Shown: piece by piece, positions 127-23,118 of the stretch
Layout: each line of letters starts with the position of its first letter
Numbering within the stretch: the first letter of the stretch is position 1
NCBI RefSeq assembly: GCF_003730195.1
Contig: NZ_QWGG01000007.1
Coordinates: 1-64,000, forward strand
Direction: 5' to 3'
Length of the DNA: 64,000 nucleotides
Source of the DNA: Halosimplex salinum
GTDB taxonomy: Archaea > Halobacteriota > Halobacteria > Halobacteriales > Haloarculaceae
Translations under genes and position numbers: made by a program
The notes under the pieces: model-generated
The model's database searches: none
What the model saw: only the letters and a program-made list of their open reading frames with translations
Told to the model about the DNA's origin: nothing

Positions 127-3100
127 CTAGAAGGTAAAGTAAATGCTCGTGTCATTGATTTCTCCTGCGGGGACTTGCTCACGGTCGAACATCTCATCAA
201 CAGCGTCGTCGGAGTCCACGAAGTCAACGAGGTGGTTGCGGAGTTCCTGCAAAAAGACGTGGCTCAAGACTTCCTCTTGGTCGTGACCGGAGATGCATTC
301 CCCGGTGTGCAGGTTTTCGACGCAGCCGTCGACATCCGGAGAGAAAAACAGTGACTCGACACGCGACAGCTCATCCAGATCGACGTTGAGTGCGTCAACG
401 CGTCCTTCGGGAAACGCGTTGACGCCATCAAGTTGCGCATCGGCCACGGTGTGCTTCACAGTATAAGCGTCGCGGAGCGCGATGGTTTCCTCATCGCTGA
501 GCTGGGCAGCCCGGTCACACGTCGACAATACCTCTTGCACCACTTCGTCCCTGATCTCAGGGAAGACTAGGTCAAGCTGCTCCTCAAGATAGGTGTCGAC
601 ACAGCGTTTGACAGCGTCATCATCGACATTGCGCTCGGGCAGGTCATCGACGAAGTCAGGGTCGGCCCAGAGTTGTTCGTTGATGACCTGCGTGTTGTAG
701 GTGATGCGGACAAGTGATTCAAGGAGCGTGCCGGGGTCGTTCTCCAGTTCATCGTAGACGAGATCGACGATACCCTGTCCCCCTTCCGTCCGCTCGAAGA
801 TGAAGACGATGCCTTCCTCGGGATCCAGGCCGTAGAACAGCATGGACGGGTTGACACCGCCGACGTCCGCAACTAAGTGAAGGAAGAAGTGGGCGGCTGT
901 ATGATATGCTAATTCGTCGATCGGGACTTCGTCCAGGTTCTTGTACCGGGCGACATCAGCGATGAGGTCCTCGTTGTCCTCAACGTAGGCGACGAAGTCG
1001 GTGAGATCGTAGATGAGGCCGCGTGTCTTCAGATCGAAGCCGAGCGGTGTCTCCGGGCTGTCGATTTCACGTTGGATAGGGTCGTCTCCGGTAAACTGGA
1101 TACCCAGATCGCCCATCGGCCGGGCGGGAGTGATGTCCAGAGAGACTCCTTCCAACGTGACTTGCCCGCGGATCTCGGCGAGCGCGAGACTACCGGTTGT
1201 GTCCTCTACGTCAGTGTCGCGGGCGACGGTCCGGACCTGGGGTTCGGCATGGACTTTGCCCCACGCTATCTCGTTGTGTCGGATGCACCGTTGATCGTCA
1301 AGCAAGGTCAGGCACTGCGGGCAGTAGGCCACGATGTTGAGCGCGCGTTGTCCGGTGACATCAGGGATCTCTGAGAGCTGGATGGAGTCCGGGATCAGCA
1401 TTCCGTTCCGCCGGTCTCCGGGGATGTCGCTGAAGTCGAACTGGACCTCGTTGCCCGTTGGCTGTTCCCCGTAGCTTTCGACTTCAGTCGGTGGGAGGAA
1501 GAGATGGAGGCTAGAAGATTCGTTTTGGAATTCACTGCGGTACGGTGCGTGGGAGTGGACGAGGCTGTCGATGGTTTCCTCGTTATCGTCGAACCCGTTA
1601 GGGCCGATCACAGTGAAGAACTGGCCGCTGCTGCCGAAGTACGATGGCGGCACGTACCAGATCTCGTCGTTGTAGGTGCGGTCGGTGACCTGGAGATAGC
1701 GGTGGAGGTAGTAGGCCGCACGGAGCAAGTGCTTCACGTAGTGGAGACTCATATGTGGCCGGTTCACCCGGCTGTCAGGGTCTCGTTCGAGGTCGCGGTA
1801 TTCTCCGAGCTGGTCAAGGACGCGACGGAGGTAATAAATCTGGTATCGTTCGTCGATGTTCTCCTCGAGCCGGCCGTCACCGGCGATCGAGCTTAGGATG
1901 TCGACGGCATCACTGAGATCGTTTATTCGGTCGAGGGAGACATCTTCAGGGCGGTCATCGATGTGGATGTTGATCTGGGCGCGGAGTCCGGTGAGATCGC
2001 CGACTGCCGAAATGATCCTGCCGAAGAGCTGTTCATACTGTTCGACACGTTCGGTCTCAGCACCGCGGTAGCCGTCACGGGTCTCCTCACGTAGCTCCGC
2101 GAACTCGTCGCGGAGTTCGTCAAGGTCATCATCGAGGTCGGAGGCGTCGCTGCTGTCAATGTGGCCCTGGTACTGGTCGGCAATGTCGACGTAGTGGCTG
2201 ATAACTTCGAGGGTCCGTTGCCGGACTTCGTCGACGTACTGCTCGAAGGCGTTGTCGCTACGGGTAATTTCACCGCTCTCAATGTTGATCAGGTCATTGA
2301 CTTCCGCGAACTCCTCTTCCAGCTCGCATTCGCGTTCGTTGAGTATGTCGCGGACGGATTCGATCCCTGCCTCCGTAGTCAACGGTTCGACGGTGTCGTC
2401 GATGTCGAATTCGGCAAGGAGGAAGTCGCTGGGATTGAGCAGTAACTGGTAGAACTCTTGGTACTGCCTGTCCTGGGTGAGGAACTCCTCAAGGAATGTT
2501 TCTTCTTCGCCGCGGCGGATGCGGCGGTTCTCGATGTCGCTCGCCCGAGTATAGTAGGTGTTGAGGGTGGTGTGGATCCACTCGATGACGTCGTTGTCGG
2601 GCTTGAGCGGGGTGCGGAGCTCGGAGCTGAGGAAGCGGTCCGCCCGGTAGAACATGTTGGCGTCGTTCGTCAGGTTAGACAGGAAGACGAAGATGTGGGC
2701 GTCCATACCTTCCTCCCGAGCGGCGCGGCCGGTGCGCTGGACGAAAGAGGACAGGTTCTGCGGAGTTCGGTACTGAGTGACATGCTTGATCTCGCCGATG
2801 TCAATCCCGACTTCAAGGAACGAGGTAGAGAGGAAGATATCGCTTTCAGCGGCATCCTCCGCGTCGAACCCTATCTCGGAGTAGACGGAGAGGAAATCGA
2901 GGGGTCGGTTCTCGATAAAATCGTAGTCCATGGCATCAGCGATGTCGGCCCAGTCTGCTTCCGGATTCGCCGGTTGCTGGCCGCGCGGCGACCGATCGGT
3001 ATGGTGGTGCCACAAGGGGGGTTCGTCTTGGTTGTCGTCGCCGCGTTCGGCGTCGTCGAGCTGGGCTTTCTTCTGGTTGACCTGACTGATACTGTCGATG

Positions 3101-4296
3101 AACGACAGAGCTTTGCCCTCGTTGCCGTCGGTATCGCGGAGGAGGCTGTGGCCGATCAACAGCAGTTGCTGGATCATCATGGAGGAGGCACCCGGTCCGT
3201 CCTCCGGTGATAACAGGAAGTAGTAATGCTCCTTGTCGTCGTGGTCTTGTTTGAGGTCGGATTCAGGGACGTCGACCGTGGCTAAATGATCGGAGGGGAA
3301 GTTGAACAGCTTTCGTATGAACCGGTCGGCGTTGTCGATCGTGGCACTCGCCCCGATCCAGAGCAGGGGTTGGTCCGTGATGTCGTTAATGTTGTCGATG
3401 ATCTTGGCAGCATGTGCGCCACGCAGCCGGGTGTAGAGGTGGACCTCGTCCAAGACAAACGTGTCTACGTCGTCGATGATGTTGTAGTTCGGCTTGAGTG
3501 CAAAGAGCTCCAACGATTCCAGCGTGGTCAGCAGGATGTCCGGGGTTTCCCCATCCTTGATACGCTGGCGGCTCAAGACGAGTTCGTTGTTGGTGAAGTT
3601 GTGAGTGTCGTCTGCCTCACAGCGAATGGTGTAGGAGTCCGAACTCCCATCATAGGTAAACGCGTTCGTCGTGTTTTCATCGCCGCACCAGCAGTGCGCC
3701 AATTGGAACGTTTCCCGTCCGTTCTCGGATTCGAAGTAATCATCGCGGACATCGCCCACGCTGTAGGGCATACCCCCCATGTAGACACCGACGGAGAGTG
3801 GTGCCTGCTCGCCGGCAGACCGCATGGAGTTGACGTGCTTCAGGATCCGGCCGAGCTGGTCTTGGAGGAGTGCTCGCCGCGGATAGACGATGACCGTGGT
3901 ATCTTGCTCACCGTCCCGCAACTGTTGGTACAGCGGGCCGAGAAATGCCTCCGTTTTCCCGAACCCGGTCGGAGCCGACAGGATAGCGGCATGGGGCTGT
4001 CCTATGTCGTGGCGTCGCTGGTGGAAGTCGTTGATCAGCTGCCAGCTATCAACCTGGAAGTCGAGCGGGTCGAAGTCGAAAATATCGAGGATGTCGTCAA
4101 CGAACGGGTCGGCGCCGTCGTACGGGGTGGACAGCCGCCGTTTCTGCTCTTCGCTGGTGTATTTGACTGCGTCGGTCACCGGATCGCCGTTGTGGTCGGT
4201 GCCGAGCAGCTGGCGATTAAACAGCATTCCGCGGACCAGAGGTCGGACCTCTGTTGGGACCCGGTTCGGGTTCGTTGTGTGGTCGCTATATTGCAT
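127..4296 (-). CDS. Giant DEAD/DEAH-type helicase with DUF1998-like C-terminus
   Basis: A 1389-residue superfamily 2 helicase. Walker A APTGFGKT lies at about residues 108-115, the DEVH Walker B box near 280, and motif VI (FVQRTGRAAR) near 520. A long acidic, helical middle region follows, then a Cys/His cluster (CPQC...C..H) near residue 993 and a late segment containing GGQGIVDLVYDEL that recalls DUF1998/MrfA-type helicases. The gene diverges from the 1580-residue helicase operon across 212 bp, so the two could be co-controlled. Size and context fit the helicase components (DpdJ/DpdF-like) of bacterial 7-deazaguanine DNA systems, or the DrmA/DrmB style of DISARM. The helicase call is firm; the family name is inference. 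Confidence 0.85.
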   Translation of the reverse strand: MQYSDHTTNPNRVPTEVRPLVRGMLFNRQLLGTDHNGDPVTDAVKYTSEEQKRRLSTPYDGADPFVDDILDIFDFDPLDFQVDSWQLINDFHQRRHDIGQPHAAILSAPTGFGKTEAFLGPLYQQLRDGEQDTTVIVYPRRALLQDQLGRILKHVNSMRSAGEQAPLSVGVYMGGMPYSVGDVRDDYFESENGRETFQLAHCWCGDENTTNAFTYDGSSDSYTIRCEADDTHNFTNNELVLSRQRIKDGETPDILLTTLESLELFALKPNYNIIDDVDTFVLDEVHLYTRLRGAHAAKIIDNINDITDQPLLWIGASATIDNADRFIRKLFNFPSDHLATVDVPESDLKQDHDDKEHYYFLLSPEDGPGASSMMIQQLLLIGHSLLRDTDGNEGKALSFIDSISQVNQKKAQLDDAERGDDNQDEPPLWHHHTDRSPRGQQPANPEADWADIADAMDYDFIENRPLDFLSVYSEIGFDAEDAAESDIFLSTSFLEVGIDIGEIKHVTQYRTPQNLSSFVQRTGRAAREEGMDAHIFVFLSNLTNDANMFYRADRFLSSELRTPLKPDNDVIEWIHTTLNTYYTRASDIENRRIRRGEEETFLEEFLTQDRQYQEFYQLLLNPSDFLLAEFDIDDTVEPLTTEAGIESVRDILNERECELEEEFAEVNDLINIESGEITRSDNAFEQYVDEVRQRTLEVISHYVDIADQYQGHIDSSDASDLDDDLDELRDEFAELREETRDGYRGAETERVEQYEQLFGRIISAVGDLTGLRAQINIHIDDRPEDVSLDRINDLSDAVDILSSIAGDGRLEENIDERYQIYYLRRVLDQLGEYRDLERDPDSRVNRPHMSLHYVKHLLRAAYYLHRYLQVTDRTYNDEIWYVPPSYFGSSGQFFTVIGPNGFDDNEETIDSLVHSHAPYRSEFQNESSSLHLFLPPTEVESYGEQPTGNEVQFDFSDIPGDRRNGMLIPDSIQLSEIPDVTGQRALNIVAYCPQCLTLLDDQRCIRHNEIAWGKVHAEPQVRTVARDTDVEDTTGSLALAEIRGQVTLEGVSLDITPARPMGDLGIQFTGDDPIQREIDSPETPLGFDLKTRGLIYDLTDFVAYVEDNEDLIADVARYKNLDEVPIDELAYHTAAHFFLHLVADVGGVNPSMLFYGLDPEEGIVFIFERTEGGQGIVDLVYDELENDPGTLLESLVRITYNTQVINEQLWADPDFVDDLPERNVDDDAVKRCVDTYLEEQLDLVFPEIRDEVVQEVLSTCDRAAQLSDEETIALRDAYTVKHTVADAQLDGVNAFPEGRVDALNVDLDELSRVESLFFSPDVDGCVENLHTGECISGHDQEEVLSHVFLQELRNHLVDFVDSDDAVDEMFDREQVPAGEINDTSIYFTF

Positions 4297-4508: not shown

Positions 4509-7500
4509 ATGCCATCTCCGCTCGACGCATTTACAGCCGCCACGGATCGCGCCTCCGAGATCACGTGGTGGAATCGGAAACTTACCAAGCTCAACCGTAT
4601 TTCAGGCGTTACCAACGCTCCTTCTTTTGTCTCCAACGAACTGGTGGACACCAAAGGCCCGTATCTCGAATTTGTCTCACCACCGGCCACAACGACACGA
4701 CCCGCCACCGAGTTACTGGACCAGTACGACTACGATGACCGGGTTGTCGACGCGATCGTCGACGAACTGTTCGGCGGCGACCAGGCCGGCTCACTCTACC
4801 AGCATCAGGCAGAAACGATTGAGGCCATCGAGACGGACTCCGACGACAACATCTTGGCTGTGCCGACGGCGACTGGGAAAACAGAGTCGTTCTTCTTCCC
4901 TTTACTCAATGACTGTGTGTCGACGAACGAAGACGGATTGAAAGCCATCATCAACTACCCGATGAAGACGCTGGGTGTCGACCAGCTCAATCGGTTTCTC
5001 CGCTACATCGACACAGTAAATCAGGAACTGCCGCGCGAGGACCGCGTCACCATCGGGATCTGGGATCGAGATACGCCAGCAGCAGTCGGGCCACGTGACT
5101 TTGACCTTGAAATAGGCGCTAACATCCGCGGTCTAGAGTGTCCCCGTACACAAGATGATCTACGGGTAACTACTGATGGAACACCGGGCAGTGAGAGTTG
5201 GACCTACCCATGGCTCAAGATCACCCGAGAGCAGATTCGGGACGGGGTCGACATCCTCCTGACGAACCCGGAGGCCCTTGATTATATGTTCGTCAGTGAT
5301 AATGAGCATACCCGTGATATTTTGGGACAAGGGCCGGAGAAAAGCCCGGTCCAACACGTGGTCTTTGACGAAGCGCACGTTTGGAGCGGAATCTCTGGGT
5401 CCAGTATCGGGTTGCTCATTCGCCGCCTCAAACAGTTCTACGCAGCGCACGACCCGCAAGTCACGCTCGTCTCAGCCACCATCGAGAATCCCAGCGACTT
5501 GGCCTCTGTCCTGACCGGGACGAATCAAGACGAGGTCAACGAGATCGGGTTCACTGCCCGCGACTTCCCGGTCACCGGTACGACTGATTTCGACCGGTTT
5601 GCGGAGTGCTCACTCCGCGACATCGTTGAAACACTCGTCCTCACCGAACGCCACGCCGTCGACCGGGAGACGTTCTGTGACAGCTATCCCCAGTTGACCG
5701 GTGCAGTCACCACATTGGAGGAGATCGGACTCTTGGCAGGACCAGACCCCTTGAATGTACCGGACCAGCACCGAGACTGGGTATTCGCCCCCATCGCTGA
5801 CAGCATCGATACTGAACAGGAAGCCGATACAGCGAAAGCTATCCAGAACGGTGGGACAGCGCTCGGGATAGCAGCCGAAGAACTGGATATCTTGACGGAA
5901 CAGGTGGTGGAGCACGGTGATATCGGCGGCAGATGGTTCCAGTTTATCCGTGATACGGTTCCGGAAGTCGCGACTCTGGCATCGTGGTTCATGGACGAGT
6001 CGACCACCGAGGTTGAGTTCGAGCACTACGCTGACCTCGTGAACCGACTAGAGGAAGCAGGTGCGTCGAACCCGGATGAAACGGTGTCGGCCCTGCTTGC
6101 TCTAGGACGAGCAGCCGGGATGGTGACGGCGAAGTACCACATGTTCGCCAAACCGCCGCGGAAGATCTACTGGTGCCAGACATGCGAGGAAGTGATCCGT
6201 GGCCGGTCTTGTCCCGAGGGCCACCAGACACGGGAACTCCGGTTCTGCCGGACCTGCCATCACCCGTTCGTCGAAGTCGACACCGAAAACGAAAACGAGG
6301 ACGAAGATGAGGAGGTGTTCCAACCGGTCTACGGCGGCGGAACGGACGGTCCATGCCCTGGCTGTTCGACGTCGCGGCTCCGGTTGACTGATATCACGGT
6401 GCCGACGCCGACCCTGCTTTCGTTCATGTTGACGTCGCTGTGCCGGTCGATGCCGTCCGAGAAGACGTTGGTCTTCTCTGATTCACGGTCGACAGCCGAA
6501 TCGGTCAGCAACGAGATCATCGGAACGGAATACGGGCTGACCGCTGAGACGCTGTACGTGAAACAGTTGATCGAGGAAGGTGGCCAAGCCGAGGTTCGGT
6601 CACTGTTTTATCCAGTAGTGGAAACCTTGCGTGAGCAGTATTGGCAGCCACTGCAACAGAACACACCGGATCGGGAAACGGACGCGAACGACATTCTCGT
6701 CGAGCTATGGAACGAAATTGAGCCGAACGCACGGCTGTCTGAGTGTCAACATCTCCGCGAAGCAGCGCTTGTTACCCCCGCATGGGTCTACACTTGTCCC
6801 AACCCGAAGACCGCGGCGATAGGCCACGAGGTGTTCAATCTCTTTGTCACCCGGTTCCCGCCTCAGTTCCAGAAACACGGGATTCAGTTCAAGGGGTATA
6901 CCCGAGAACGGCTGGTCAACAAGCTTGAATCCGAGACACGGTTCACCGAACAGGAACTCAGTGAGGTTGTCGATGATGTGCTGCAGGGCTTGTTGGACAG
7001 CGGTGTCCTTGAATTCAAGACCTGGGATGATGTCCGTAGCACAATCCTCAACGCGGGCAAAGACGAAGCAACTGAGGACGACGTCTTCGAGTATATCGAA
7101 GACCAGATCGAACATCTGGAAGCACGCGACGGATACGGTGATGTCGGCGGTGGCATCTTCGTTGTGCAAAACTACGCGAGTGAAAGCGACCTCCAACTGG
7201 TCCCCCGAGTGACGTTCTGCGACGACTGTTATACGGCGTCCCCTGTCCCCCGTGATGGTGACAGCCTTGACCACTGCCCGACTTGCGGCAATACGGTTGA
7301 CGTCCACCAACGATTCCGTGTCGAAGACGACGGTTCGTTGACCCTCCTCGGCTGGGCAGACATCGAGAGTGACTGGGAGTACCCGGTCGACCACTGGGGT
7401 CACGACCTCCTGTCACCCCTCATCCCGAGTGAAGGGACGCCAGTGTCGCGCGACGAGGTCGAGGCACTGGAGCTGGACTTCATCACGGTCGGGATCCACA

Positions 7501-9251
7501 AAGGGGATGTTCCACCGACACTGCGGAGCGCTATCGAGGAGGGGTTCCGCAAATCGGATCCAGATGTCAACATCGTTAGCGCGACTCCGACGATGGAACT
7601 CGGTGTGGACATTGGTGCCCTGGATTCAGTGGCACAGGTCGGGATACCGCCAACCTTGACCAACTACGTACAGCGCAGTGGCCGCACCGGGCGGACACGC
7701 GGCAGCGAATCTTTGGTGGCCACCACGGTACGCGGGACCCATCCTGTCGACGCACACTACTACGATGATCTGGATCGGTTCTTCGGCAGCTTCGATCCTG
7801 TCCGTGTTCCGGAACCGTTCGACTTCGACGAGATTCTGGCTGGCCATGTCGTGACCGAAGTCGTTGGCTATCTCGCTCGCAACCCGCAACCGGGCGACAC
7901 GTTCGAGGCGACCTATCGGGTTGATCAGTCGGTCGACTCGGTTGCTGCGTTCGCAGACCGGGTCGAAGCGAATCTTGATGAGCTACGCACCTTTGTCCGC
8001 GACGACATGGCAGACCAGTTGCGGGACCATATCGAGGGCGTGTTCAGGCAACGCGGCTTAGAGGTTTTCGACGAAATCTTCAGCGGTGCTGGGCCGGTGA
8101 GCTTTCGGCAACGGACACAGCAAACCTGTAGCCAACTCCGCAGCTTTAGTGGCAGTACCGATCTCGATGACATCCGTAACGGGAATGACCGATTGGATTT
8201 CTGGCTCAACCGACTGGGCTACCTAGCGAACTACCGAGAGTTCGGCCAACAATTCCCCGTCCAGTTCGAGGGCAGTAGTGAAAGCATCTCGTTCCAAGGC
8301 GATGGCCGCCTTTACGACTTCTACCCTGGTGAGGAGAACGAGCGCGGTGCAGTGATGACCTTGTACGGCTCAACCTATCTGGTATCGGACGTTGAGGGGA
8401 CGCAGGAACCGTTACAGACGGTGGCGATCTGTACAAACGACGACTGTACACGGCCGTTCGAAAGCTACCGGACAGCAGCGGAGCAGTGTCCGCACTGCGG
8501 CAGCCCTTTGGACATGATTTCGATTCACGGTGTTCAAGCAGTCAGTTGCCGGAAGGCCTACCAGTTTGAAGACCAGTTCAGCACATCGCCTATCATGACA
8601 ACTCACGTTGCTGGGCGCAGCGAGGCAGCGGCAAGCGACGAAGCCGTGGCATTCGGCCTCACCTGTGATATCGCGGTTGGCAGCTACGACGTGATCGACT
8701 TCATCCCGGCATTTGAGCGCCGCCATGCGATGGGATCCGGCAAAGATATCAAGCGGTCTGAGGCACGGATCCCTGATAGCGACACCGACGATGCTCGGCA
8801 TGCACCTGTGGGGAACCAATACGCGACACAGGGAATCACTCTCAGGTTTGAACAGGCGGAGATGGCTGATCGGCTTCCGGACACGGCGTTGGAGCAGGAA
8901 GGTGAGGCAGTGTGGCCCCAACTGTTCATTAGCCTAGAGCAAGCGCTGACAAAAGCAGTTGCCGTCGAGACGCAGAGTGACCAAGACGATTTCCGTGTGA
9001 AAGTGATGGCAACCGACGATGAGGTCTGTGTCTACATCGTCGATAACCGGCAGGGTGGCAACGGGATCGCGACACAGGTTGACCAGCACTTGGACGCTGT
9101 CGTCAACGAGGCTAAGAATGTTATCGACTGTGACGAGTGTAGCGGCTACTGTGAGAACTGCCTCTTAATCGACCGGACGCCGGCTACCTATCTCGACAAC
9201 GACTTGCTGAACAGGACAATATTGGCGAAGGCATTAGGACAGCCGGCATGA
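4509..9251 (+). CDS. Giant SF2 helicase with zinc motifs and DUF1998-type C-terminus
   Basis: A 1580-residue DEAD/DEAH helicase and first gene of a five-gene operon. Walker A PTATGKTE is at about residues 119-126, DEAH near 287 and motif VI YVQRSGRTGR near 1053. A zinc-ribbon insertion (CQTC...C and CRTC) lies near 560-585 and further CxxC pairs near 905-925 and 1320. The C-terminal CDECSGYCENC near 1540 is the four-Cys signature of DUF1998 helicases (MrfA, DrmB). The ATG at 4509 is preferred because the protein starts well before the helicase core. In bacterial Dpd clusters a comparable helicase (DpdJ) is part of the restriction arm. That role here is inferred from size, order and neighbours. 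Confidence 0.87.
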   Translation: MPSPLDAFTAATDRASEITWWNRKLTKLNRISGVTNAPSFVSNELVDTKGPYLEFVSPPATTTRPATELLDQYDYDDRVVDAIVDELFGGDQAGSLYQHQAETIEAIETDSDDNILAVPTATGKTESFFFPLLNDCVSTNEDGLKAIINYPMKTLGVDQLNRFLRYIDTVNQELPREDRVTIGIWDRDTPAAVGPRDFDLEIGANIRGLECPRTQDDLRVTTDGTPGSESWTYPWLKITREQIRDGVDILLTNPEALDYMFVSDNEHTRDILGQGPEKSPVQHVVFDEAHVWSGISGSSIGLLIRRLKQFYAAHDPQVTLVSATIENPSDLASVLTGTNQDEVNEIGFTARDFPVTGTTDFDRFAECSLRDIVETLVLTERHAVDRETFCDSYPQLTGAVTTLEEIGLLAGPDPLNVPDQHRDWVFAPIADSIDTEQEADTAKAIQNGGTALGIAAEELDILTEQVVEHGDIGGRWFQFIRDTVPEVATLASWFMDESTTEVEFEHYADLVNRLEEAGASNPDETVSALLALGRAAGMVTAKYHMFAKPPRKIYWCQTCEEVIRGRSCPEGHQTRELRFCRTCHHPFVEVDTENENEDEDEEVFQPVYGGGTDGPCPGCSTSRLRLTDITVPTPTLLSFMLTSLCRSMPSEKTLVFSDSRSTAESVSNEIIGTEYGLTAETLYVKQLIEEGGQAEVRSLFYPVVETLREQYWQPLQQNTPDRETDANDILVELWNEIEPNARLSECQHLREAALVTPAWVYTCPNPKTAAIGHEVFNLFVTRFPPQFQKHGIQFKGYTRERLVNKLESETRFTEQELSEVVDDVLQGLLDSGVLEFKTWDDVRSTILNAGKDEATEDDVFEYIEDQIEHLEARDGYGDVGGGIFVVQNYASESDLQLVPRVTFCDDCYTASPVPRDGDSLDHCPTCGNTVDVHQRFRVEDDGSLTLLGWADIESDWEYPVDHWGHDLLSPLIPSEGTPVSRDEVEALELDFITVGIHKGDVPPTLRSAIEEGFRKSDPDVNIVSATPTMELGVDIGALDSVAQVGIPPTLTNYVQRSGRTGRTRGSESLVATTVRGTHPVDAHYYDDLDRFFGSFDPVRVPEPFDFDEILAGHVVTEVVGYLARNPQPGDTFEATYRVDQSVDSVAAFADRVEANLDELRTFVRDDMADQLRDHIEGVFRQRGLEVFDEIFSGAGPVSFRQRTQQTCSQLRSFSGSTDLDDIRNGNDRLDFWLNRLGYLANYREFGQQFPVQFEGSSESISFQGDGRLYDFYPGEENERGAVMTLYGSTYLVSDVEGTQEPLQTVAICTNDDCTRPFESYRTAAEQCPHCGSPLDMISIHGVQAVSCRKAYQFEDQFSTSPIMTTHVAGRSEAAASDEAVAFGLTCDIAVGSYDVIDFIPAFERRHAMGSGKDIKRSEARIPDSDTDDARHAPVGNQYATQGITLRFEQAEMADRLPDTALEQEGEAVWPQLFISLEQALTKAVAVETQSDQDDFRVKVMATDDEVCVYIVDNRQGGNGIATQVDQHLDAVVNEAKNVIDCDECSGYCENCLLIDRTPATYLDNDLLNRTILAKALGQPA

Positions 9252-15511: not shown

Positions 15512-17503
15512 TTACGACTTCTCTTTCGTCGGCATCGTGTTGAGAGACTGCTGCACTTTCTCGGCAAGCTCATCCAGATGCTCGTTCCGGAAATGCTCGG
15601 TAAGACGCCGTGCCGGCGGATCCGTCGGGAGGACTTTTCCGACTCCAGTCTGTGTGAATGCGTCGTCGATAACGACTCGATACGTTTTGCTTGTTGCATA
15701 CCCGAAGACCTGTTCATACTCATCGCCGTACGTCTTGAGGAATGACTTGAGGCGCCGAGTTACTAGGTCGGTCTGTGACGTATCGGCGTCAGTCAACACG
15801 TAATCATACGAGAGGATCGCGTCATCCCTTTCGTACTCTTTGGGCACCGGACCGTACAGTCCTGAGACAGACACTTTCTCGACACTGTCTCTGAGTCCTG
15901 CTTCTTGTAGCCGACTGTCGATAACGCCGTGTGTCCGTGAGTCGCTGTAGGGCTTTGTCTGACTGCACGGGACGAGTAAGCAAATCGGTCGCGTGGGATC
16001 CGGTTCAAACGATCGGTCCTGTAGATCAAAATCGCTCGGCGTATGCGAGAGTGACGTTCCATCCTGTGATGGGACGACGATTTCCCCATCGTCATTGAAT
16101 ATCGTCTGATATGTTTCCGGATTCGCCTCTGGTGCATTCGAGTCGATAGCTACGTCATCTGGAACCACAGACTCCAGTTCAGGCCACCGGCTCGCAGCTC
16201 GAGCGATCCCTGCGGCGATATCATCGTTGTCTTGAGCTGCGTCCCACACTTCTTGCTCTAACCTATTGTCGTCGATTGCGCGTCGGACATCGTCAACCTC
16301 CTCCTGGAAGACATGGAAGTTGTGGTGGGCGATCAGCGCGTAAAAATCGCTTTTCATGTACTTCATCGTCTGCCCGTCCCGTTTGACTTCGATTGGCTTG
16401 TAGGACTGATCCGCATTGAAGACGAACTTCATGTCCTGGAAACCGACTTCCGTAAGTTCCTTGCAGGCCTCACAAGTGCAATCCCACTCTGCCGCGTCGA
16501 TATCGTCTACTACCTTTTTTTCACCTGTTTCCCGGTCAATGAACTTCTTGTGCTGAGCCGCTTGAATATACGTTGACGAGTCATAACTATCGACACCAAG
16601 CGTTGCTAGCAATGGTGCGAGTCGGCCCCCAATTCCAAACACGTGCAGGGCAATTTCATTGCGGCGCTCGGGAGGAATAGCATCCGTCGCACCTTGGACG
16701 ATATCGACAAGGGTCCCGATATTCCCCGAACGTAGTGGGACGAGCGATCCAACTGCGAAGCCATCGATGGTCGATTCGTAGTCCGTTCGTTCAAGGAGGT
16801 TACTCACGTAGTAGGCAATCTCCTCGTAGTTGTGACCATGGATGGCCGCATAGACGGTTGGATCCCAATCTGCGTATCTCTCATTTTCTTCGAGAAGACG
16901 AATGCACTCAACAGCGCTATCAATACTATCCTCGACACGCTGGTATTTTTCTGCTTGATTGAGATCCGGTGGAATCGGATAATCAAGTGTTGCAAGCATA
17001 TCTGCCCCGTAGTCGTACTGAAGCGAGAGAATAGATTCGGGATTGGTGTAGATTTCCCACTCGTTCTCTTCCCCTCCTTCTTCGGGTGGATCGCCGAATG
17101 TTCGTGAGTTCATCAGCTTGAACCCCCCGGAGTCAACGAACAATGGCTGCGTAAATGGGGCAGGATCGGGATTATCCTTTGGTGAGTCGTGATCGGTATG
17201 CCACTCGTGTAGGCCCTCGGCTTCTGTCCGCCACGTTTCGAGCGAATCGGGGCTCAGATGAAAATCCAGGAAGCTCATTGCCTGAAACATCGCACCCTGA
17301 AATTTATCGTCGGCAAAGAGGCGGTTCCGGAGACGACTCCAGATACCCCCGGAAACAGGTGTTGGACCACCAATCAAATTGAGTACAGGAAAGAACGCTG
17401 GTGTCTCAACAGCACCCTGCTGAGGTGCCTCAGGGGTATGGATCCGGCCGAGCCTACCCGCACCGAAGTCTGCTTCACTCACTAACTCGAATCCGCGCGA
17501 CAT
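15512..17503 (-). CDS. TGT-like DNA transglycosylase fused to ArcS-like DUF5591 domain
   Basis: A 663-residue fusion. Residues 1-400 are a tRNA-guanine-transglycosylase fold. FVDSGGFK puts an Asp at 124, LDYP an Asp at 174, GFAVGSL follows near 248-253, and VDSYDSS carries an Asp at 308; these match the catalytic and base-binding Asps of TGT. Zinc ligands read as C342, C344, C347 and H393/H394. Residues ~502-645 match the C1 domain of archaeosine synthase (DUF5591), with its signature PCSQTKPYS at 512-520. Both catalytic Asps are kept, unlike the degenerate TGT domain I recall from ArcS. I infer a DNA-targeted enzyme that may both insert and elaborate the base. It starts 176 bp after the GHKL gene on the same strand. 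Confidence 0.85.
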   Translation of the reverse strand: MSRGFELVSEADFGAGRLGRIHTPEAPQQGAVETPAFFPVLNLIGGPTPVSGGIWSRLRNRLFADDKFQGAMFQAMSFLDFHLSPDSLETWRTEAEGLHEWHTDHDSPKDNPDPAPFTQPLFVDSGGFKLMNSRTFGDPPEEGGEENEWEIYTNPESILSLQYDYGADMLATLDYPIPPDLNQAEKYQRVEDSIDSAVECIRLLEENERYADWDPTVYAAIHGHNYEEIAYYVSNLLERTDYESTIDGFAVGSLVPLRSGNIGTLVDIVQGATDAIPPERRNEIALHVFGIGGRLAPLLATLGVDSYDSSTYIQAAQHKKFIDRETGEKKVVDDIDAAEWDCTCEACKELTEVGFQDMKFVFNADQSYKPIEVKRDGQTMKYMKSDFYALIAHHNFHVFQEEVDDVRRAIDDNRLEQEVWDAAQDNDDIAAGIARAASRWPELESVVPDDVAIDSNAPEANPETYQTIFNDDGEIVVPSQDGTSLSHTPSDFDLQDRSFEPDPTRPICLLVPCSQTKPYSDSRTHGVIDSRLQEAGLRDSVEKVSVSGLYGPVPKEYERDDAILSYDYVLTDADTSQTDLVTRRLKSFLKTYGDEYEQVFGYATSKTYRVVIDDAFTQTGVGKVLPTDPPARRLTEHFRNEHLDELAEKVQQSLNTMPTKEKS

Positions 17504-17679
17504 CTGATTAGGTGTGTGAAAGACGGTCCGGGTTAATTAACTTCCTTCTCCAGAATATCCGGTCACTCTCACTGATAAAATCCACTAGCTGTCTCGTGAT
17601 TTTCTGCAGTCTGTCTGGTTTACCCCTTCTGTCCTTGTTTGGCTCGACCCAGCTCACCCGGAAGATCCGTACGATCCGT

Positions 17680-19203
17680 TTAGAATCGCTCCTGCACTTC
17701 AATGATCTCGATACGAGAGGTGGTCCCGTTCTTGTAGATAATCTCGCTCTCCGCGAAATCGAAGATCACCTCGCCACCTTGATACCCGTCTCGCTCGATC
17801 TCCTGAAGCTGGTCACGATCACCCAGGTCCCAGCAGACGATTTTCTCGACACTCTGAAGCGGCTTCTCCGCTTCAAAATGATCCATAAGTGTGGGATGGA
17901 GGGAGCAACTCCAGAGTTCCCCGTCCTTGCGGATCATCGCATTGATGTCCGATCCCATCTGAAAGTCTTCCGCCTGTACCGTCTCGGCGGAACTGTTCGA
18001 TCGCTCTAACGCGAGGAGTACCTCTGCTTGGTTTGTGGGTTCGAACGAATTTCGCTCCTTCACACGCTCACGGCGCTCTTCGACAGAAGATAGTTGCGAC
18101 TCCGCCTTCCGATCAAGCTCCGCGATTCGGCGCTGTTCGAGATAGTCCTTGAACCACGGGTCCTCTCCCACTTTCGAGAGGAAGTGATCGAGTTCGTCGA
18201 CGAGCGCCTGATAGACGGGGCTCGATTTGTTTCGGATCTTTCCGCGGTTTGCGGAGAGCTCGAGCTCCTGGCAGTTCGCGATGAAGAAGAAGTGGAGGAA
18301 CTCGTTGTCGTGAGAGATGGCTTCGTTCACCCGTTCCACTTTGATGAAGTCCTTCGCTAACCAGACTCCGAATTGGGCGGAGTGTTTCCCGTAGGTGGGC
18401 AGTTCGTTTCGAGCGGCCTTCCCACCGACCATCCCGACCACCTGTGCTGTCGTCGTTCCACCGTCGTGAGGGATTGTGAGCTCTTGAGGCGGGTAGATCT
18501 TGCACATTCGCTCTGCAGGGAACTCACCAGTACTTGGTCTGAGTTGCTCCGATGGGAACTCGAGACGATTCGTGGTCTGAAGTTCCGACTGTGTGTCGTC
18601 GATCTCCTCGTCCAGAACGACGCGGATCTCCATCTCCCGCTCTTCCTCGCCGAAATAGTGGGCTGTCGAGCCGGCGATGGTCTTCCACTTGAGGTAGTGG
18701 TGGATCTTGTTGTAGGTGAGCGACCTAGGGTCGAACCCCTGCCCGGATTTGAATCCCTCAATTCGGATCTCCGTCCCGTCGGTAGATTCAGTCGGTTCTA
18801 CCTCCGTAACTTCGTACTCCGGGAGAACTCGATCGTTGAGTTTCTCCCACGGGCGTTCCATCGTCGCCCGAAGAGTAGTGTCTCCAGTTGTCGTAGTGAC
18901 GACGATCCGCTCGCTCTTGTAGAAAATCTTCGTCCCGTGGCCTTTGTAGCCAATCGAATCCGTCTTCTGGGAATTACCGAGGTCGAAGAACGTTTCCAGC
19001 TGCTGGCGGTTCATTCCAGTTCCATTGTCCTCGATGATGATCTCGGAACCATTTGGGTGGCTGGATATTTCGATTTCGACGTTCGTCGCCTGTGCGTCGT
19101 AGCTATTCGAGAGCGATTCCCGAATCACTTCCAGTGGATCCTCGAAGTCGCTCGCCGTCTCGAGGAACTCGTTGACCTCATTGACCTGTGGTGACTTTTT
19201 CAT
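17680..19203 (-). CDS. GHKL (Hsp90/MORC-like) ATPase
   Basis: A 507-residue protein. A longer in-frame ORF exists, but the ATG at 19203 overlaps the stop of dpdA (TAATG) and starts just before the ATPase fold. The Bergerat fold is clear: N-box (EVIRESLSNSYDA, Glu and Asn), G1 box DNGTGM and G2 box GYKGHGTK within the first ~85 residues. The transducer-like region follows, and the C-terminus (~370-507) is unassigned. Its position between two TGT-like genes implies a role in base modification or in sensing modified DNA, like MORC/GyrB-type clamps. I do not know a precedent for this pairing; the role is inference. Confidence 0.83.
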   Translation of the reverse strand: MKKSPQVNEVNEFLETASDFEDPLEVIRESLSNSYDAQATNVEIEISSHPNGSEIIIEDNGTGMNRQQLETFFDLGNSQKTDSIGYKGHGTKIFYKSERIVVTTTTGDTTLRATMERPWEKLNDRVLPEYEVTEVEPTESTDGTEIRIEGFKSGQGFDPRSLTYNKIHHYLKWKTIAGSTAHYFGEEEREMEIRVVLDEEIDDTQSELQTTNRLEFPSEQLRPSTGEFPAERMCKIYPPQELTIPHDGGTTTAQVVGMVGGKAARNELPTYGKHSAQFGVWLAKDFIKVERVNEAISHDNEFLHFFFIANCQELELSANRGKIRNKSSPVYQALVDELDHFLSKVGEDPWFKDYLEQRRIAELDRKAESQLSSVEERRERVKERNSFEPTNQAEVLLALERSNSSAETVQAEDFQMGSDINAMIRKDGELWSCSLHPTLMDHFEAEKPLQSVEKIVCWDLGDRDQLQEIERDGYQGGEVIFDFAESEIIYKNGTTSRIEIIEVQERF

Positions 19204-20462
19204 TAGAAGTACCCCCCAAGGGAGTCGTTGATGACGCGATGGGCAAACCGTCGCATCGATTTGTTCCGTCCGACAGTCGATTCGATATACTCTGCGAGTC
19301 CATCCGCTCCGTCGTCGTGGATGCACTCTCTAATTCGTGTTACCTCGTCTTTCTGGATGATCAGATTGTGCATGGATACGGCCCCCAGTTCGTCTTTTTT
19401 GTACTCGGCGTCCCCTCTCATCCATGCTCGGAGTTCCGGATTGGAACACACCGGACAGTAGCAATCTTCAAACGACGCTTCATCTAGCGGCACGGTATTC
19501 GTGAGCGACGTGTGGTACTTCCCGTTTATCGCCGCGTGGATGTACGAAGAGGAGTCGAACGAATCGACTCCGAGCGCGATCAGTAGTGGAATGGAACTGC
19601 TCGAAATCCCGAGGACGTGAAATGGAAGATCATCGAACTCGTAGTCGGCCAAGACCTCCTTACAGTCGCTGACTGCCGTAATCAGATCGCCTTTGTTGTC
19701 CTTCTTCGGAACCAGACTTCCGAGAGCGATTCCGTCGAAGCACGACCGGACGAGATGTGGGCCGAGAATATCTGTCAACTCAGATAAGAAAGTATCACAC
19801 ATCGAGTAGTTGTACCCGTGTATGGTGAGATACCGGACAGATTTATGGTCCCCAGACAATCGCAAGAACTCAGCGACATTCTGTGCTGTTTTCCTGGCCT
19901 TTTCGACGCGGGTCTGATACCCGTCGTCAGGCGTAATTGGATGGTCGAGATTGACGAGAACATCACCACCCAGTTGTTGTTGAATATCGAAGACCGCTCG
20001 CTGGTCAATCTCCATCTCGAAGTCGCTTCCATCTAACTCGCCGTCGTGGAGAAATTTGTATCCGCCAGAGTCAACGAACAGCAGTCCATCGAACTCGGAA
20101 AACTCTGACCGTTCCTTGATCGGTGTTTCGAGATATGTTTCGAACGTATCTCGTGGTATCCCGTAATCTGTGAGCGATGAGACAGAAACCATCGCTGCAT
20201 CGAAATACTCAGCACACGCTTCGAGGTCCAACTTTCCTCGTCCCGTCATGAACTCCTTCATCGTCCGGTGGATGCCACCACCGAACAGACTCTGTTCGAG
20301 ACCACCCGCATAGAAATTTATCACCGGGAACAGATTTGGTGTCTCGAGTGCAGTGTCGTCGAAGCTCAGTTGTCCCGCGCGTGCATCTCCTGCAGTCGAC
20401 TCAACGGTAAACGAACTATGTGAGGTGACTGCATCGCCAACAATAGCTGAGTGTGACTTCAT
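19203..20462 (-). CDS. dpdA: DpdA-type DNA guanine transglycosylase
   Basis: A 419-residue TGT paralogue with no PUA or tRNA-binding domain, as expected for DpdA, which exchanges guanine in DNA for preQ0. Catalytic residues by position: D131 in FVDSGGYK, D173 in LDHP, GIALGSL at 244-250, and D303 in SFDSSSYIHAA. Zinc site: C334, C336, C339 and H365. It overlaps the DUF6884 gene (ATGA) upstream and the GHKL gene (TAATG) downstream, so the three are translationally coupled. The preQ0 genes queD, queE and queC diverge immediately beyond. The assignment to DNA rather than tRNA rests on length, lack of PUA and context. Confidence 0.85.
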   Translation of the reverse strand: MKSHSAIVGDAVTSHSSFTVESTAGDARAGQLSFDDTALETPNLFPVINFYAGGLEQSLFGGGIHRTMKEFMTGRGKLDLEACAEYFDAAMVSVSSLTDYGIPRDTFETYLETPIKERSEFSEFDGLLFVDSGGYKFLHDGELDGSDFEMEIDQRAVFDIQQQLGGDVLVNLDHPITPDDGYQTRVEKARKTAQNVAEFLRLSGDHKSVRYLTIHGYNYSMCDTFLSELTDILGPHLVRSCFDGIALGSLVPKKDNKGDLITAVSDCKEVLADYEFDDLPFHVLGISSSSIPLLIALGVDSFDSSSYIHAAINGKYHTSLTNTVPLDEASFEDCYCPVCSNPELRAWMRGDAEYKKDELGAVSMHNLIIQKDEVTRIRECIHDDGADGLAEYIESTVGRNKSMRRFAHRVINDSLGGYF

Positions 20463-20926
20463 TGTGCCTGCGGTAGTTCAGTATCCGACTGTAGCGACTG
20501 CAAGAACTCCTTCAGAAAATGTCCCTTCTCTCCAAGGCCCTCTCCATCTACCAGCACTAACTCTGCGTCAAGACCGTTCTGAAAGCCGTCGATTGCCTCC
20601 CAGTACGTCTTTCCGGCGTTGACGACTATCTGTTCGTACTCGGAATTCTCAGCGAGTTCGCGTAGCTCCGTCGTGAGAGTCGGTCGAAGTTCAGCCGCGC
20701 GCTGCTCGTCCATCTTTCGGTCGTAGTTCTCAATGGGGTCGTCGGGATGGAGTAAACCGTACTCCGCAGAGAGAATTCTGATGTCGAATGGTGCGCCGTT
20801 GAGAGGGCTGTCGAGGGCGTTTTTGATGATCCGATAAAAGTACCCGTCGTATCGCTCGAACGCCGGAATCGGCTCTGGCGTGTCTACCTTCCGTTCTGAA
20901 CAGGATTGGACGAGTAGTGTGTTCAC
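20459..20926 (-). CDS. DUF6884 (YaaA-like) protein, possible base-maturation enzyme
   Basis: About 155 residues from a GTG at 20926. An in-frame ORF extends to 21070, but the domain starts right at LLVQSCSERK and the extra 48 residues look non-coding. Conserved DUF6884 features are visible: a Cys-Ser-x-x-Lys-type turn, FERYDGYFYRII, and ILSAEYGLLHPDDPI. The fold is related to YaaA and, distantly, to the DUF5591 domain of ArcS. It overlaps dpdA by 4 nt. In bacterial Dpd systems a separate enzyme (DpdC) turns the preQ0 nitrile into an amide; this protein is a candidate for a similar step. That is inference. The start is uncertain. Confidence 0.7.
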   Translation of the reverse strand: MNTLLVQSCSERKVDTPEPIPAFERYDGYFYRIIKNALDSPLNGAPFDIRILSAEYGLLHPDDPIENYDRKMDEQRAAELRPTLTTELRELAENSEYEQIVVNAGKTYWEAIDGFQNGLDAELVLVDGEGLGEKGHFLKEFLQSLQSDTELPQAQ

Positions 20927-21100
20927 GATGCGGGTGATCACGCCGACGGGTCTTATTGGTATCGCCGTCACCGAATCAGATGGCGCTGAGTTGAAGAGAC
21001 GACAACGCTCGTCGATTCTACTAGTGTGATTCGGATGTGGCCACGCCCCAAAGTCTGCCCTGATGGGCACACTTTAGTATTCCCTAGGTAATATCCCGGT

Positions 21101-21550
21101 ATGTCTCAGGGGGCAAAATCGGAACGTCGCACTCTCGGTTCGGAAGAACGAACGCTCGAAATCGGTAGTGAAACCCCCATCCGAATTAGCGCAGGCCATC
21201 GCCTGCAACACCACGACGGGAAGTGTTCGCGACCACACGGACATAACTACGAAATCTCGGTATCGGTCACTGGTGAGCTCACGAACGACGGCTGGGTCGT
21301 AGATAAAGGGGATATTACTGAGATATTATCTGAGTGGGATCATCGGTTCCTGCTCGAACGCGGTGATCCGCTCGTTTCGGCGTTCGAGCAGAGTGGTGAT
21401 GGGGACGCACTGGTCGTTCTCGACCACCCGCCGACAGCCGAGGTAATGGCAGTCGTCCTCGAGCGTAAGATGCTGGAGGCGTTCCCGGATTCCGTCTCTA
21501 ACGTCTCCGTCGAAGTGAGCGAGACGAGCGAACTCTGTGCCACGTACTAA
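21101..21550 (+). CDS. queD: QueD, 6-carboxy-5,6,7,8-tetrahydropterin synthase
   Basis: A 149-residue 6-pyruvoyl-tetrahydropterin-synthase-family protein. Zinc ligands are His33 (AGHRL) and the two His of PHGHNY (46, 48), and the catalytic Cys is in KCSRPHGHNY (about 42). The DKGDI and DHPPTAE motifs of the family are present. It converts dihydroneopterin triphosphate to CPH4, the second step to preQ0. Its stop overlaps the queE start (TAATG). GTP cyclohydrolase, needed for the first step, is not in the window and must be supplied elsewhere. Confidence 0.93.
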   Translation: MSQGAKSERRTLGSEERTLEIGSETPIRISAGHRLQHHDGKCSRPHGHNYEISVSVTGELTNDGWVVDKGDITEILSEWDHRFLLERGDPLVSAFEQSGDGDALVVLDHPPTAEVMAVVLERKMLEAFPDSVSNVSVEVSETSELCATY

Positions 21551-22329
21551 TGCCGGTCAATGCAGACGTCGAGAGACCGGACACGGAGTCCTCAGCAGAG
21601 TCCGCACAATCACTCCCGATCAACGAGCTGTTCTATTCCCTGCAAGGGGAAGGAAAGCTCGCGGGCGTTCCGACAGTCTTCGTGCGGACAAGCGGCTGTA
21701 ATCTCCGCTGTTGGTTCTGCGATTCCTATCACACCTCTTGGGAACCAACCCACTCGTGGATGAGCCTCGACGATATTATTGACGAGGTTTCAGCATACGA
21801 CCAAGCCACTCACGTCGTCCTGACTGGTGGTGAACCACTGATGTACGACGACAGCGTCGAGTTACTGAATCGGCTCGGCGAAGCCGGGTATCACACGACC
21901 GTCGAGACGAACGGGACAATCTACCGCGACGCACACATCGACCTCGCGAGCATCAGCCCCAAATTAGCGAGCAGTACACCGACACCCGAGAAGGATCCTA
22001 AGGGGGAGGGAGACTGGGCATCTCGTCACGAAGACCGACGGATCGACATGGGGGCACTCACGACGCTCGTCGACGACTACGAGAGTCAACTGAAGTTCGT
22101 CGTCACAGGTCCCGATGATATGGACGAGATCGAGGAGTTGGTCGACCGAGTCCGGGATGCAACGTCGACTGCGATCCCCGATTCAGACATCTTGCTGATG
22201 CCGGAAGGGGTGACTCGCGATCAACTGGACGAGACGAGAAATGAAGTCGCCGAACTGGCGACCGAACATGGATATCGCTACACGCCGCGGCTACACGTCG
22301 ACCTCTGGAACGATGCCCCCGGAACGTGA
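21550..22329 (+). CDS. queE: QueE, 7-carboxy-7-deazaguanine synthase (radical SAM)
   Basis: A 259-residue radical SAM enzyme with CX3CX2C at residues 50-57 (GCNLRCWFC), preceded by the family motif FYSLQGEGKLAGVPTVFVRT. The TGGEPL motif for SAM binding is present. It rearranges CPH4 to CDG. Coupled to queD by an overlapping stop/start, with queC 69 bp downstream. The N-terminal ~24 residues are an acidic, probably disordered tail. Confidence 0.93.
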   Translation: MPVNADVERPDTESSAESAQSLPINELFYSLQGEGKLAGVPTVFVRTSGCNLRCWFCDSYHTSWEPTHSWMSLDDIIDEVSAYDQATHVVLTGGEPLMYDDSVELLNRLGEAGYHTTVETNGTIYRDAHIDLASISPKLASSTPTPEKDPKGEGDWASRHEDRRIDMGALTTLVDDYESQLKFVVTGPDDMDEIEELVDRVRDATSTAIPDSDILLMPEGVTRDQLDETRNEVAELATEHGYRYTPRLHVDLWNDAPGT

Positions 22330-22398
22330 CACCGAAATCGATGCTACCGATCACAGACCAGCTACGGAGTATGCAGTTCCAACGACCCATTACGACCA

Positions 22399-23118
22399 AT
22401 GAGTGACGAAAAGCGAGCCGTGATTCTAGTATCGGGCGGGATGGACAGTGCGACGGCTGTCTACGAGGCGATCGACCGTGGCTACGAGCCGTACTTTTTC
22501 CACACGTCGTACGGGCAAGAGACCGAAAACAAGGAACAAGAGTGTGCAGAAGCGCTTGCTGCTGAGGTCGACGCGGCCGACTTTCTCCACGTCGAGACAC
22601 ACCACCTGGTGGCAATCGGCGCGTCGAGCCTGACGGATACCGACATCGACGTGGCCGATGCCGATCTGGATAGTGACGATATCCCGACCTCCTACGTCCC
22701 GTTCAGAAATGCGAATTTGCTCTCGATGGCAACATCGTACGCCGAAGCAAACGATTGTTCGGCTGTGTTCATCGGCGCGCATAGCGAGGACTTCTCGGGA
22801 TATCCAGACTGCCGGCCCGAGTTCTTCGACGCGTTTCAGCAGGTCATCAATGTCGGCACGAAGCCGGAGACGAGGATCGAACTTGTCGCACCGTTCGTCG
22901 AGTGGTCCAAGACCGACATCGCAGAGCGCGGGCTGGAACTCGACGTCCCCTATGAGATCACCTGGAGTTGCTATCGAGACGAAGAGCCAGCCTGTGGAAG
23001 GTGTGATGCTTGTGCCTTCCGCCTGCAGGCGTTCCAGCGGGTCGGTGTCTCGGACCCAATCGACTACGCCGAGCGGCCGGAGTATCACGCCGAGTCGCTC
23101 ACAGACTCCGCTGAGTAA
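22399..23118 (+). CDS. queC: QueC, 7-cyano-7-deazaguanine (preQ0) synthase
   Basis: A 239-residue PP-loop ATP pyrophosphatase with SGGMDS at residues 12-17. The C-terminal zinc site reads C(YRDEEPA)CGRCDAC near 198-212. It makes preQ0 from CDG, ATP and ammonia. Haloarchaea need preQ0 for tRNA archaeosine anyway, so a local copy next to dpdA points to a dedicated supply for DNA. Whether the genome carries a second queC elsewhere cannot be seen. Confidence 0.93.
   Translation: MSDEKRAVILVSGGMDSATAVYEAIDRGYEPYFFHTSYGQETENKEQECAEALAAEVDAADFLHVETHHLVAIGASSLTDTDIDVADADLDSDDIPTSYVPFRNANLLSMATSYAEANDCSAVFIGAHSEDFSGYPDCRPEFFDAFQQVINVGTKPETRIELVAPFVEWSKTDIAERGLELDVPYEITWSCYRDEEPACGRCDACAFRLQAFQRVGVSDPIDYAERPEYHAESLTDSAE

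What the first reader, a model, noticed from the sequence alone, without database searches (positions are those of the whole stretch)
127..23118. Haloarchaeal 7-deazaguanine DNA modification and restriction island
Seen: queD, queE and queC diverge from a coupled set of DUF6884 protein, DpdA-type transglycosylase and GHKL ATPase, followed on the same strand by a TGT/DUF5591 fusion and a GIY-YIG nuclease. Two giant helicases, a wHTH-type protein and a 1001-residue P-loop protein lie next to them. Known: bacterial Dpd islands pair DpdA and preQ0 genes with helicase/ATPase restriction proteins. Inference: this is an archaeal version with its own set of partners, and it may define a distinct subtype.
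Basis: partly seen in the sequence, partly recalled or inferred. Interest (0 to 1): 0.88.

Follow-up and report, generated by a model that had tools for sequence, protein, structure and literature searches.

The report
Archaeal 7-deazaguanine DNA modification-restriction island
A salt-loving archaeon carries a gene island that very probably swaps guanines in its own DNA for a 7-deazaguanine base and attacks DNA lacking it; the system class was named, without experiments, in a 2025 preprint, but its twin base-swapping enzymes, mix-and-match modules and status as the genome's only preQ0 gene source make it worth testing.

Summary
The island is a haloarchaeal relative of bacterial Dpd and matches BRIGADE Type I, a haloarchaea-only class named from comparative genomics in Bell et al. 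2025 (PMC12458937). It is therefore a member of a named but untested kind. (2) An invariant, translationally coupled DUF6884-TGT-GHKL unit, so a GHKL ATPase stands where bacteria have DpdB. (3) An exchangeable restriction cassette (YprA-x298-DpdG-DpdH-x230): 75-89% identical in a genome whose modification genes are only about 50% identical, and elsewhere beside an unrelated, bacterial-like DpdA module. (4) The island's queDEC is the genome's only copy, so tRNA archaeosine also depends on it. (5) The expected PLD nuclease gene is cut by an IS5-like element at the contig edge; a GIY-YIG nuclease remains. Best mechanism: preQ0 is inserted into DNA, elaborated to dADG or dG+ (or a lysine adduct), and unmarked DNA is restricted. 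No chemistry was tested; structure models were poor.

The parts
1..127 (.). End of an IS5-like insertion element; the contig breaks inside it
   Evidence: 94.5% identical to a Natrinema pellirubrum transposase region, 65 haloarchaeal plasmid records matched
129..155 (-). First nine codons (MTRAFTLPS) of a PLD-family nuclease gene (DpdK-like), interrupted by the IS
   Evidence: Same 29-nt overlap with the DpdJ stop and same N-terminus as the intact PLD genes of Haladaptatus sp. YSMS36, G065 and G003
127..4296 (-). DpdJ-like SF2 helicase (Dpd-branch YprA), 1389 aa
   Evidence: PADLOC DpdJ 3.5e-52; tblastn to annotated dpdJ of Enterobacter, Agrobacterium, Paenibacillus 1e-19 to 1e-22; hhalign to Enterobacter DpdJ 8.7e-32
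4509..9251 (+). Second YprA-family helicase with MZB zinc domain (ARMADA/Druantia-like), 1580 aa
   Evidence: Pfam DEAD, Helicase_C, MZB; PADLOC DruE 5.8e-47; all 8 plasmid records with a match also carry island TGTs
9289..10185 (+). x298, unknown protein of the restriction cassette, 298 aa
   Evidence: No family match; conserved between YprA and DpdG in 8 related islands and in the two type B islands that hold the cassette
10164..11033 (+). DpdG-like protein, 289 aa (weak)
   Evidence: NF041064 DpdG E 0.0017 in one of 8 members; position next to DpdH as in bacterial dpd
11030..14035 (+). DpdH-like P-loop ATPase, 1001 aa
   Evidence: PADLOC DpdH 1.2e-6; hhalign to Enterobacter DpdH 2.6e-4 over 263 columns
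14019..14711 (+). x230, unknown protein at the DpdI position, 230 aa
   Evidence: Conserved in 7 related islands; no detectable similarity to DpdI
14754..15374 (-). GIY-YIG nuclease, 206 aa
   Evidence: Pfam GIY-YIG 7.4e-6; homologues in 3 other islands
15512..17503 (-). Catalytically intact TGT domain fused to an ArcS core (DUF5591), 663 aa
   Evidence: Pfam TGT 3.9e-24 and DUF5591 3.9e-14; all catalytic/zinc residues and PCSQTKPYSDSRTH kept; PDB profile hits 1iq8 3e-23 and 2q07 1e-10
17680..19203 (-). GHKL ATPase (MutL/MORC-like ATP site), about 507 aa
   Evidence: Pfam HATPase_c_3 9e-16; MutL 1.6e-5; N, G1 and G2 boxes invariant
19203..20462 (-). DpdA-like TGT, 419 aa
   Evidence: Pfam TGT 3.5e-25; NCBIfam DpdA 9.5e-7; D131, D173, D303, C334/336/339, H365 conserved
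20459..20926 (-). DUF6884 (DpdC/YaaA-like) protein, about 155 aa
   Evidence: Pfam DUF6884 9.3e-13; PADLOC DpdC 4.4e-5; hhalign to Enterobacter DpdC 1.2e-5
21101..21550 (+). queD
   Evidence: Pfam PTPS 6.7e-23
21550..22329 (+). queE
   Evidence: Pfam Radical_SAM 2.2e-19; 66-75% to the other island QueE proteins
22399..23118 (+). queC, the only full-length copy in the genome
   Evidence: Pfam QueC 5.3e-71; own-genome searches

Best explanation
A host-encoded modification-restriction island. QueD/E/C make preQ0 (shown as genes; the first pathway enzyme must come from elsewhere, since no FolE was found). Two active TGTs exchange guanine in the host's DNA for preQ0 (inferred), helped by the coupled GHKL ATPase, which takes the place of DpdB, for instance as an ATP-dependent clamp or DNA remodeller (inferred). 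DUF6884 and/or the fused ArcS core then convert dPreQ0 to dADG, or to a lysine adduct that the host RaSEA turns into dG+ (inferred). DNA without the mark is attacked by the DpdJ and YprA helicases with DpdG, DpdH, x298, x230 and a nuclease (inferred from Dpd). In this strain the PLD nuclease gene is cut by an IS element, so either the GIY-YIG enzyme cleaves or restriction is lost and the island only modifies.
For: Homology of DpdJ, DpdH, DpdC-like and TGT proteins to bacterial Dpd parts; G-H order next to x230, and the DpdJ-PLD pair, as in dpdG-H-I-J-K; both TGTs keep all catalytic and zinc residues; both lie outside arcTGT+ArcS, 99/98 support, while the genome has its own arcTGT, ArcS and RaSEA; strict trio DUF6884-TGT-GHKL; DpdH in 8 of 146 family genomes, every time in a genome with a 7-deazaguanine module; the same cassette beside a bacterial-like DpdA module in Natronosalvus rutilus and G142, which ties it to DNA modification; no homologue in phages or viral contigs.
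Against: No nucleoside analysis and no expression data. The 419-aa TGT is not in the bacterial DpdA clade, and deep branches are weakly resolved. No DpdB, DpdD, DpdE or DpdF was found. DpdG is a weak match and x298/x230 are unknown. The PLD nuclease is disrupted here. Three of ten island genomes in the family lack DpdH.
Confidence: 0.8

Rival explanations
1. Modification-only island: the modification half works, but restriction is dead in this strain because of the IS in the PLD gene, and the mark serves other ends (protection, regulation).
For: IS5-like end at 1-127 cutting the PLD gene after nine codons; G091, G011 and G046 keep the modification core without DpdH.
Against: All other cassette genes are intact open frames and conserved; a GIY-YIG nuclease is present; the rest of the PLD gene could not be looked for beyond the contig edge.
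Confidence: 0.15
2. RNA-modification island: the TGTs and ArcS core act on tRNA or another RNA and the helicases are unrelated neighbours.
For: TGT and ArcS families are tRNA enzymes; the profile matches are stronger to arcTGT (1e-32) than to DpdA (1e-6); queDEC also serves tRNA.
Against: Housekeeping arcTGT, ArcS and RaSEA are present; Pfam finds no PUA or TGT_C2 domain in the island TGTs although own ArcS has both (own arcTGT also showed none, so this is weak); strict linkage to DpdJ/DpdH homologues; cassette exchange with a bacterial-like DpdA module.
Confidence: 0.07
3. Counter-modification: the TGTs remove or replace viral 7-deazaguanines (haloviruses such as HVTV-1 carry dPreQ1), and the cassette attacks modified DNA.
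For: TGT base exchange can be reversible in principle; HVTV-1 DNA carries dPreQ1 (PMC6884629); DUF262 proteins, usually modification-dependent restriction, occur beside related islands.
Against: The island carries preQ0 synthesis and ArcS/DpdC-like elaborating domains, which an eraser does not need; canonical Dpd restricts unmodified DNA.
Confidence: 0.05

Closest known systems
BRIGADE Type I (Bell et al. 2025 preprint, PMC12458937)
   Same: Haloarchaeal, two YprA-type helicases (one Dpd-branch, one ARMADA/Druantia-like), 7-deazaguanine gene cluster, PLD nuclease gene next to DpdJ in intact relatives.
   Different: The main text gives no anatomy of the modification genes; here: twin active TGTs, TGT-ArcS-core fusion, GHKL ATPase, GIY-YIG nuclease, IS-disrupted PLD. 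The preprint's supplement could not be read.
Bacterial Dpd system (dpdA-K, e.g. Enterobacter cloacae pPOL9A)
   Same: preQ0 genes, TGT, DpdC-like protein, DpdJ, DpdH, weak DpdG, PLD beside DpdJ, G-H gene order.
   Different: No DpdB, D, E or F found; GHKL in the coupled operon; TGT outside the DpdA clade; a second TGT fused to an ArcS core; an extra YprA helicase.
Archaeosine tRNA enzymes arcTGT and ArcS
   Same: TGT fold and zinc site; DUF5591 with PC-x3-KPY-x2-S-x2-H.
   Different: Island fusion keeps the TGT active-site aspartates that ArcS lacks, has no detected PUA/C2 domain, and falls outside arcTGT+ArcS in the tree.
Haloarchaeal 'type B' islands (Halorientalis litorea, Natronorubrum aibiense, Natronosalvus rutilus plasmids; G142, G089)
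   Same: queDEC, two TGTs, a DUF6884 domain, an ATPase; two of them (N. rutilus, G142) have the same YprA-x298-DpdG-DpdH cassette.
   Different: Main TGT is a bacterial-like DpdA (967 aa with DUF6884), with a 344-aa TGT, a 298-aa protein and a BrxC/D ATPase instead of GHKL.

Membership tests
BRIGADE Type I | Found in halophilic archaea | tested here: met
   Nearest named relatives are all Halobacteria; fusion in 39 of 391 genomes of the class, 26 of 86 genera
BRIGADE Type I | Two YprA-family helicases, one in the Dpd branch and one ARMADA-like | tested here: met
   DpdJ 3.5e-52 and DruE 5.8e-47 as best PADLOC matches, dpdJ by tblastn; no helicase tree with ARMADA references was built
BRIGADE Type I | 7-deazaguanine biosynthetic cluster | tested here: met
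   QueD, QueE, QueC, two TGTs
BRIGADE Type I | PLD or PD-(D/E)xK nuclease in the neighbourhood (typical, not strict) | tested here: inconclusive
   PLD present in intact relatives beside DpdJ; here its first nine codons remain before an IS5-like element; a PD-(D/E)XK gene at 24970-26037 lies outside the conserved block
Bacterial Dpd system | DpdA in the DpdA clade | tested here: not met
   Island TGTs form own clades; bacterial DpdA plus type B proteins form another, 100/99; the direct AU test did not finish
Bacterial Dpd system | DpdB (DGQHR/ParB-like) | tested here: not met
   No DpdB match among the island proteins; GHKL sits in the coupled unit
Bacterial Dpd system | DpdJ, DpdH, DpdG restriction proteins | tested here: met
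   DpdJ strong, DpdH moderate, DpdG weak
Bacterial Dpd system | dPreQ0 or dADG in DNA | not testable with these tools
   Needs mass spectrometry
arcTGT/ArcS (tRNA archaeosine) | Groups with arcTGT or ArcS in a TGT tree | tested here: inconclusive
   arcTGT+ArcS 99/98 excluding the island proteins, but AU does not reject fusion+ArcS, p = 0.097
arcTGT/ArcS (tRNA archaeosine) | PUA and C2 tRNA-binding domains | tested here: inconclusive
   None detected in island TGTs; own ArcS has both, own arcTGT showed none by Pfam

The most novel reading that the evidence does not exclude
The TGT-ArcS-core fusion installs preQ0 in cellular DNA and adds lysine to it, so that the archaeon's own genome carries dPreQ0-Lys or 2'-deoxyarchaeosine as a self mark; this would be a new or so far virus-only base in a cell's DNA, with one restriction cassette able to read marks laid by two unrelated modification modules.
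Probability: 0.35. Interest if true: 0.87.

Novelty: new member of a known kind. Interest (0 to 1): 0.62.

Why it matters
In the papers held here, 7-deazaguanine in DNA has been shown for bacteria, phages and archaeal viruses, not for an archaeal cell. This island makes that directly testable. It also ties tRNA archaeosine and DNA self-marking to one preQ0 source, which could make the island hard to lose, and shows that restriction cassettes and modification modules of this kind are swapped as blocks. Both points bear on how such defence systems evolve.

Tried and rejected
AlphaFold2 on the TGT-ArcS fusion and on GHKL gave poor models (mean pLDDT 43.5 each; only two sequences were allowed in the alignment); Foldseek still ranked arcTGT first for the fusion, used only as weak support. 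Viral-contig and phage scans for homologues: none. The idea that queDEC sits at its ancestral chromosomal place was rejected: its neighbours in congeners are at C6 in this genome, without queDEC. x230 = DpdI and x298 = any Dpd protein: no detectable similarity. A bacterial GHKL relative (Caballeronia pSBC2-5) has no dpd genes near it. The HVTV-1 gene taken as DpdA had an extreme branch and no TGT motifs, so both phage rows were left out of the second tree. AU tests of DpdA-like+bacterial DpdA and +arcTGT did not finish. FolE search negative, as expected if MptA is used (PMC5485725). No Rfam family or tRNA in the window.

Full report
What is there. Every gene in the finding is confirmed. From the contig start: the end of an IS5-like element (1-127), the first nine codons of a PLD-nuclease gene overlapping the end of a DpdJ-like helicase (127-4296, -), a second YprA-family helicase with an MZB zinc domain (4509-9251, +), x298, a weak DpdG (289 aa), a DpdH-like P-loop ATPase (1001 aa) and x230, all + strand and overlapping or nearly so; then on the - strand GIY-YIG, a TGT-DUF5591 fusion, GHKL, a 419-aa TGT and DUF6884; then queD-queE-queC on the + strand. 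The GHKL and DUF6884 starts are later than the first-listed ones (19203 and about 20926), which makes the DUF6884-TGT-GHKL trio overlap by 4 nt at each joint.

Conservation. The 419-aa TGT is found at over 400 bits in 10 of 146 genomes of the family and in Haloplanus ruber, Haladaptatus sp. YSMS36 and Natrinema sp. SYSU A 869. In all of these the trio DUF6884-TGT-GHKL is kept in order, and the TGT-DUF5591 fusion is in the same genome, near or apart. The fusion occurs in 39 of 391 genomes of the class, in 26 of 86 genera. It is absent from 2.9 million viral contigs under the scan used, and the 419-aa TGT from phage records as well, so this is a cellular island and not a viral protection cassette.

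The two TGTs. Both keep the DSGG aspartate, the LDxP aspartate, the nucleophile aspartate of GVDxxD and a Cys3-His zinc site (assignment of these positions follows the alignment to Pyrococcus arcTGT 1iq8 and general knowledge of TGT enzymes). The fusion also keeps PCSxxKPYxxSxxH, the motif seen in all canonical ArcS proteins looked at, intact in 13 of 14 fusions (the G075 protein has Q for the final H). Canonical ArcS lacks the DSGG aspartate, so the fusion is not simply an ArcS copy. In a 61-row tree the island TGTs form two clades of their own; arcTGT and ArcS join each other (99/98), and bacterial DpdA joins the type B proteins (100/99). An AU test does not reject fusion+ArcS (p = 0.097), so the deep order is open. 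The profiles of the two island TGTs align over 358 columns at 2e-55. The DUF5591 part matches AF0587 (2q07) at 1e-10. ArcS of Thermococcus transfers lysine even to the preQ0 nucleoside, and arcTGT cannot exchange preQ0-Lys back (PMC11298593); this makes lysine transfer to dPreQ0 and a lock-in role for the fusion plausible, by inference.

Relation to Dpd. DpdJ is strong (3.5e-52 PADLOC; 8.7e-32 profile; annotated dpdJ genes by tblastn). DpdH is moderate (1.2e-6; 2.6e-4), DUF6884 to DpdC moderate (4.4e-5; 1.2e-5), DpdG weak (0.0017). Bacterial order is dpdF-G-H-I-J-K; here the order is YprA-x298-G-H-x230 and J-PLD. No DpdB was found; the coupled GHKL ATPase (MutL/MORC-like) holds its place, which is inference from position.

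Relation to BRIGADE. Bell et al. 2025 (PMC12458937) describe, by comparative genomics, systems found only in halophilic archaea with a 7-deazaguanine cluster, a PLD or PD-(D/E)xK nuclease and two YprA helicases, one ARMADA-like and one of the Dpd branch (Type I). The window fits. It is therefore a member of a named, untested kind. Only the main text could be read, so which of the details below are already listed there is not known.

Modules are exchanged. The restriction cassette of G075 is 75-89% identical to the window's, while its modification proteins are 48-55% identical and its DpdJ 35%; conversely G091 has modification proteins about 70% identical but no DpdH. Natronosalvus rutilus and G142 carry the same YprA-x298-DpdG-DpdH cassette (29-45%) beside a bacterial-like DpdA module with a 344-aa TGT and a BrxC/D ATPase. 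DpdH occurs strongly in 8 of 146 family genomes: 7 with the island TGT, 1 with the type B module (Fisher p = 4e-9 for the first association). One cassette served by two unrelated modification modules, one of them bacterial-like DpdA, is the best argument here that the island TGTs act on DNA.

queDEC. The window's QueC is the only full-length one in the genome, and a DNA search finds no second queDEC. Congeners without the island have one queDEC at a conserved chromosomal site (QueC 87% identical); in this genome the neighbouring segment is present at C6 without queDEC. Since arcTGT, ArcS and RaSEA are present, tRNA archaeosine must draw on the island's preQ0. That the island is thereby hard to lose is inference.

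Nuclease. In Haladaptatus a PLD gene overlaps the end of DpdJ by 29 nt. In the window the same overlap and start (MTRAFTLPS) are seen, then an IS5-like end and the contig edge. The PLD gene is therefore broken in this assembly. A GIY-YIG gene, also in three other islands, may stand in, or restriction may be lost.

Verdict. Dpd-like self-marking and restriction in an archaeon is the best reading (0.8). The chemistry of the mark (dPreQ0, dADG, dG+ or a lysine adduct) is open and needs mass spectrometry.

Noticed in passing
window 1-127: End of an IS5-like element (94.5% to a Natrinema transposase region); the assembly contig breaks inside it and it interrupts the PLD nuclease gene.
   Followed up: yes
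window 32272-33729: A class II lysyl-tRNA synthetase (best PDB matches bacterial LysRS, 1e-115) lies about 9 kb from queC; possibly of interest because ArcS uses lysine, possibly unrelated.
   Followed up: partly
window 54532-57933 and 60637-61962: TraG/VirB4-like ATPase and a phage-type integrase, suggesting an integrative or conjugative element next to the island.
   Followed up: no
window 23585-24520: ArdC-N / M78 peptidase protein beside queC; a 66% homologue lies beside the G075 island too.
   Followed up: partly
window 24970-26037: PD-(D/E)XK nuclease gene downstream of the island; not seen as part of the conserved block.
   Followed up: no
L121, L122, L190, L192-L193 (G142), L105 (G089): Second haloarchaeal island type: bacterial-like DpdA with DUF6884, 344-aa TGT, 298-aa protein and BrxC/D ATPase, often with queDEC; two of these carry the window's restriction cassette.
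   Followed up: yes
L036 14074-16560 (G091): An 828-aa protein with a DUF262 match (PDB 9jfl, 1.7e-9) directly beside queC in an island without the YprA-DpdH cassette; a possible alternative effector, with homologues at two other islands.
   Followed up: partly
L125 (Picosynechococcus plasmid): A cyanobacterial plasmid also pairs an annotated dpdA with a second small TGT between DEAD-box helicases, so twin TGTs are not only archaeal.
   Followed up: no
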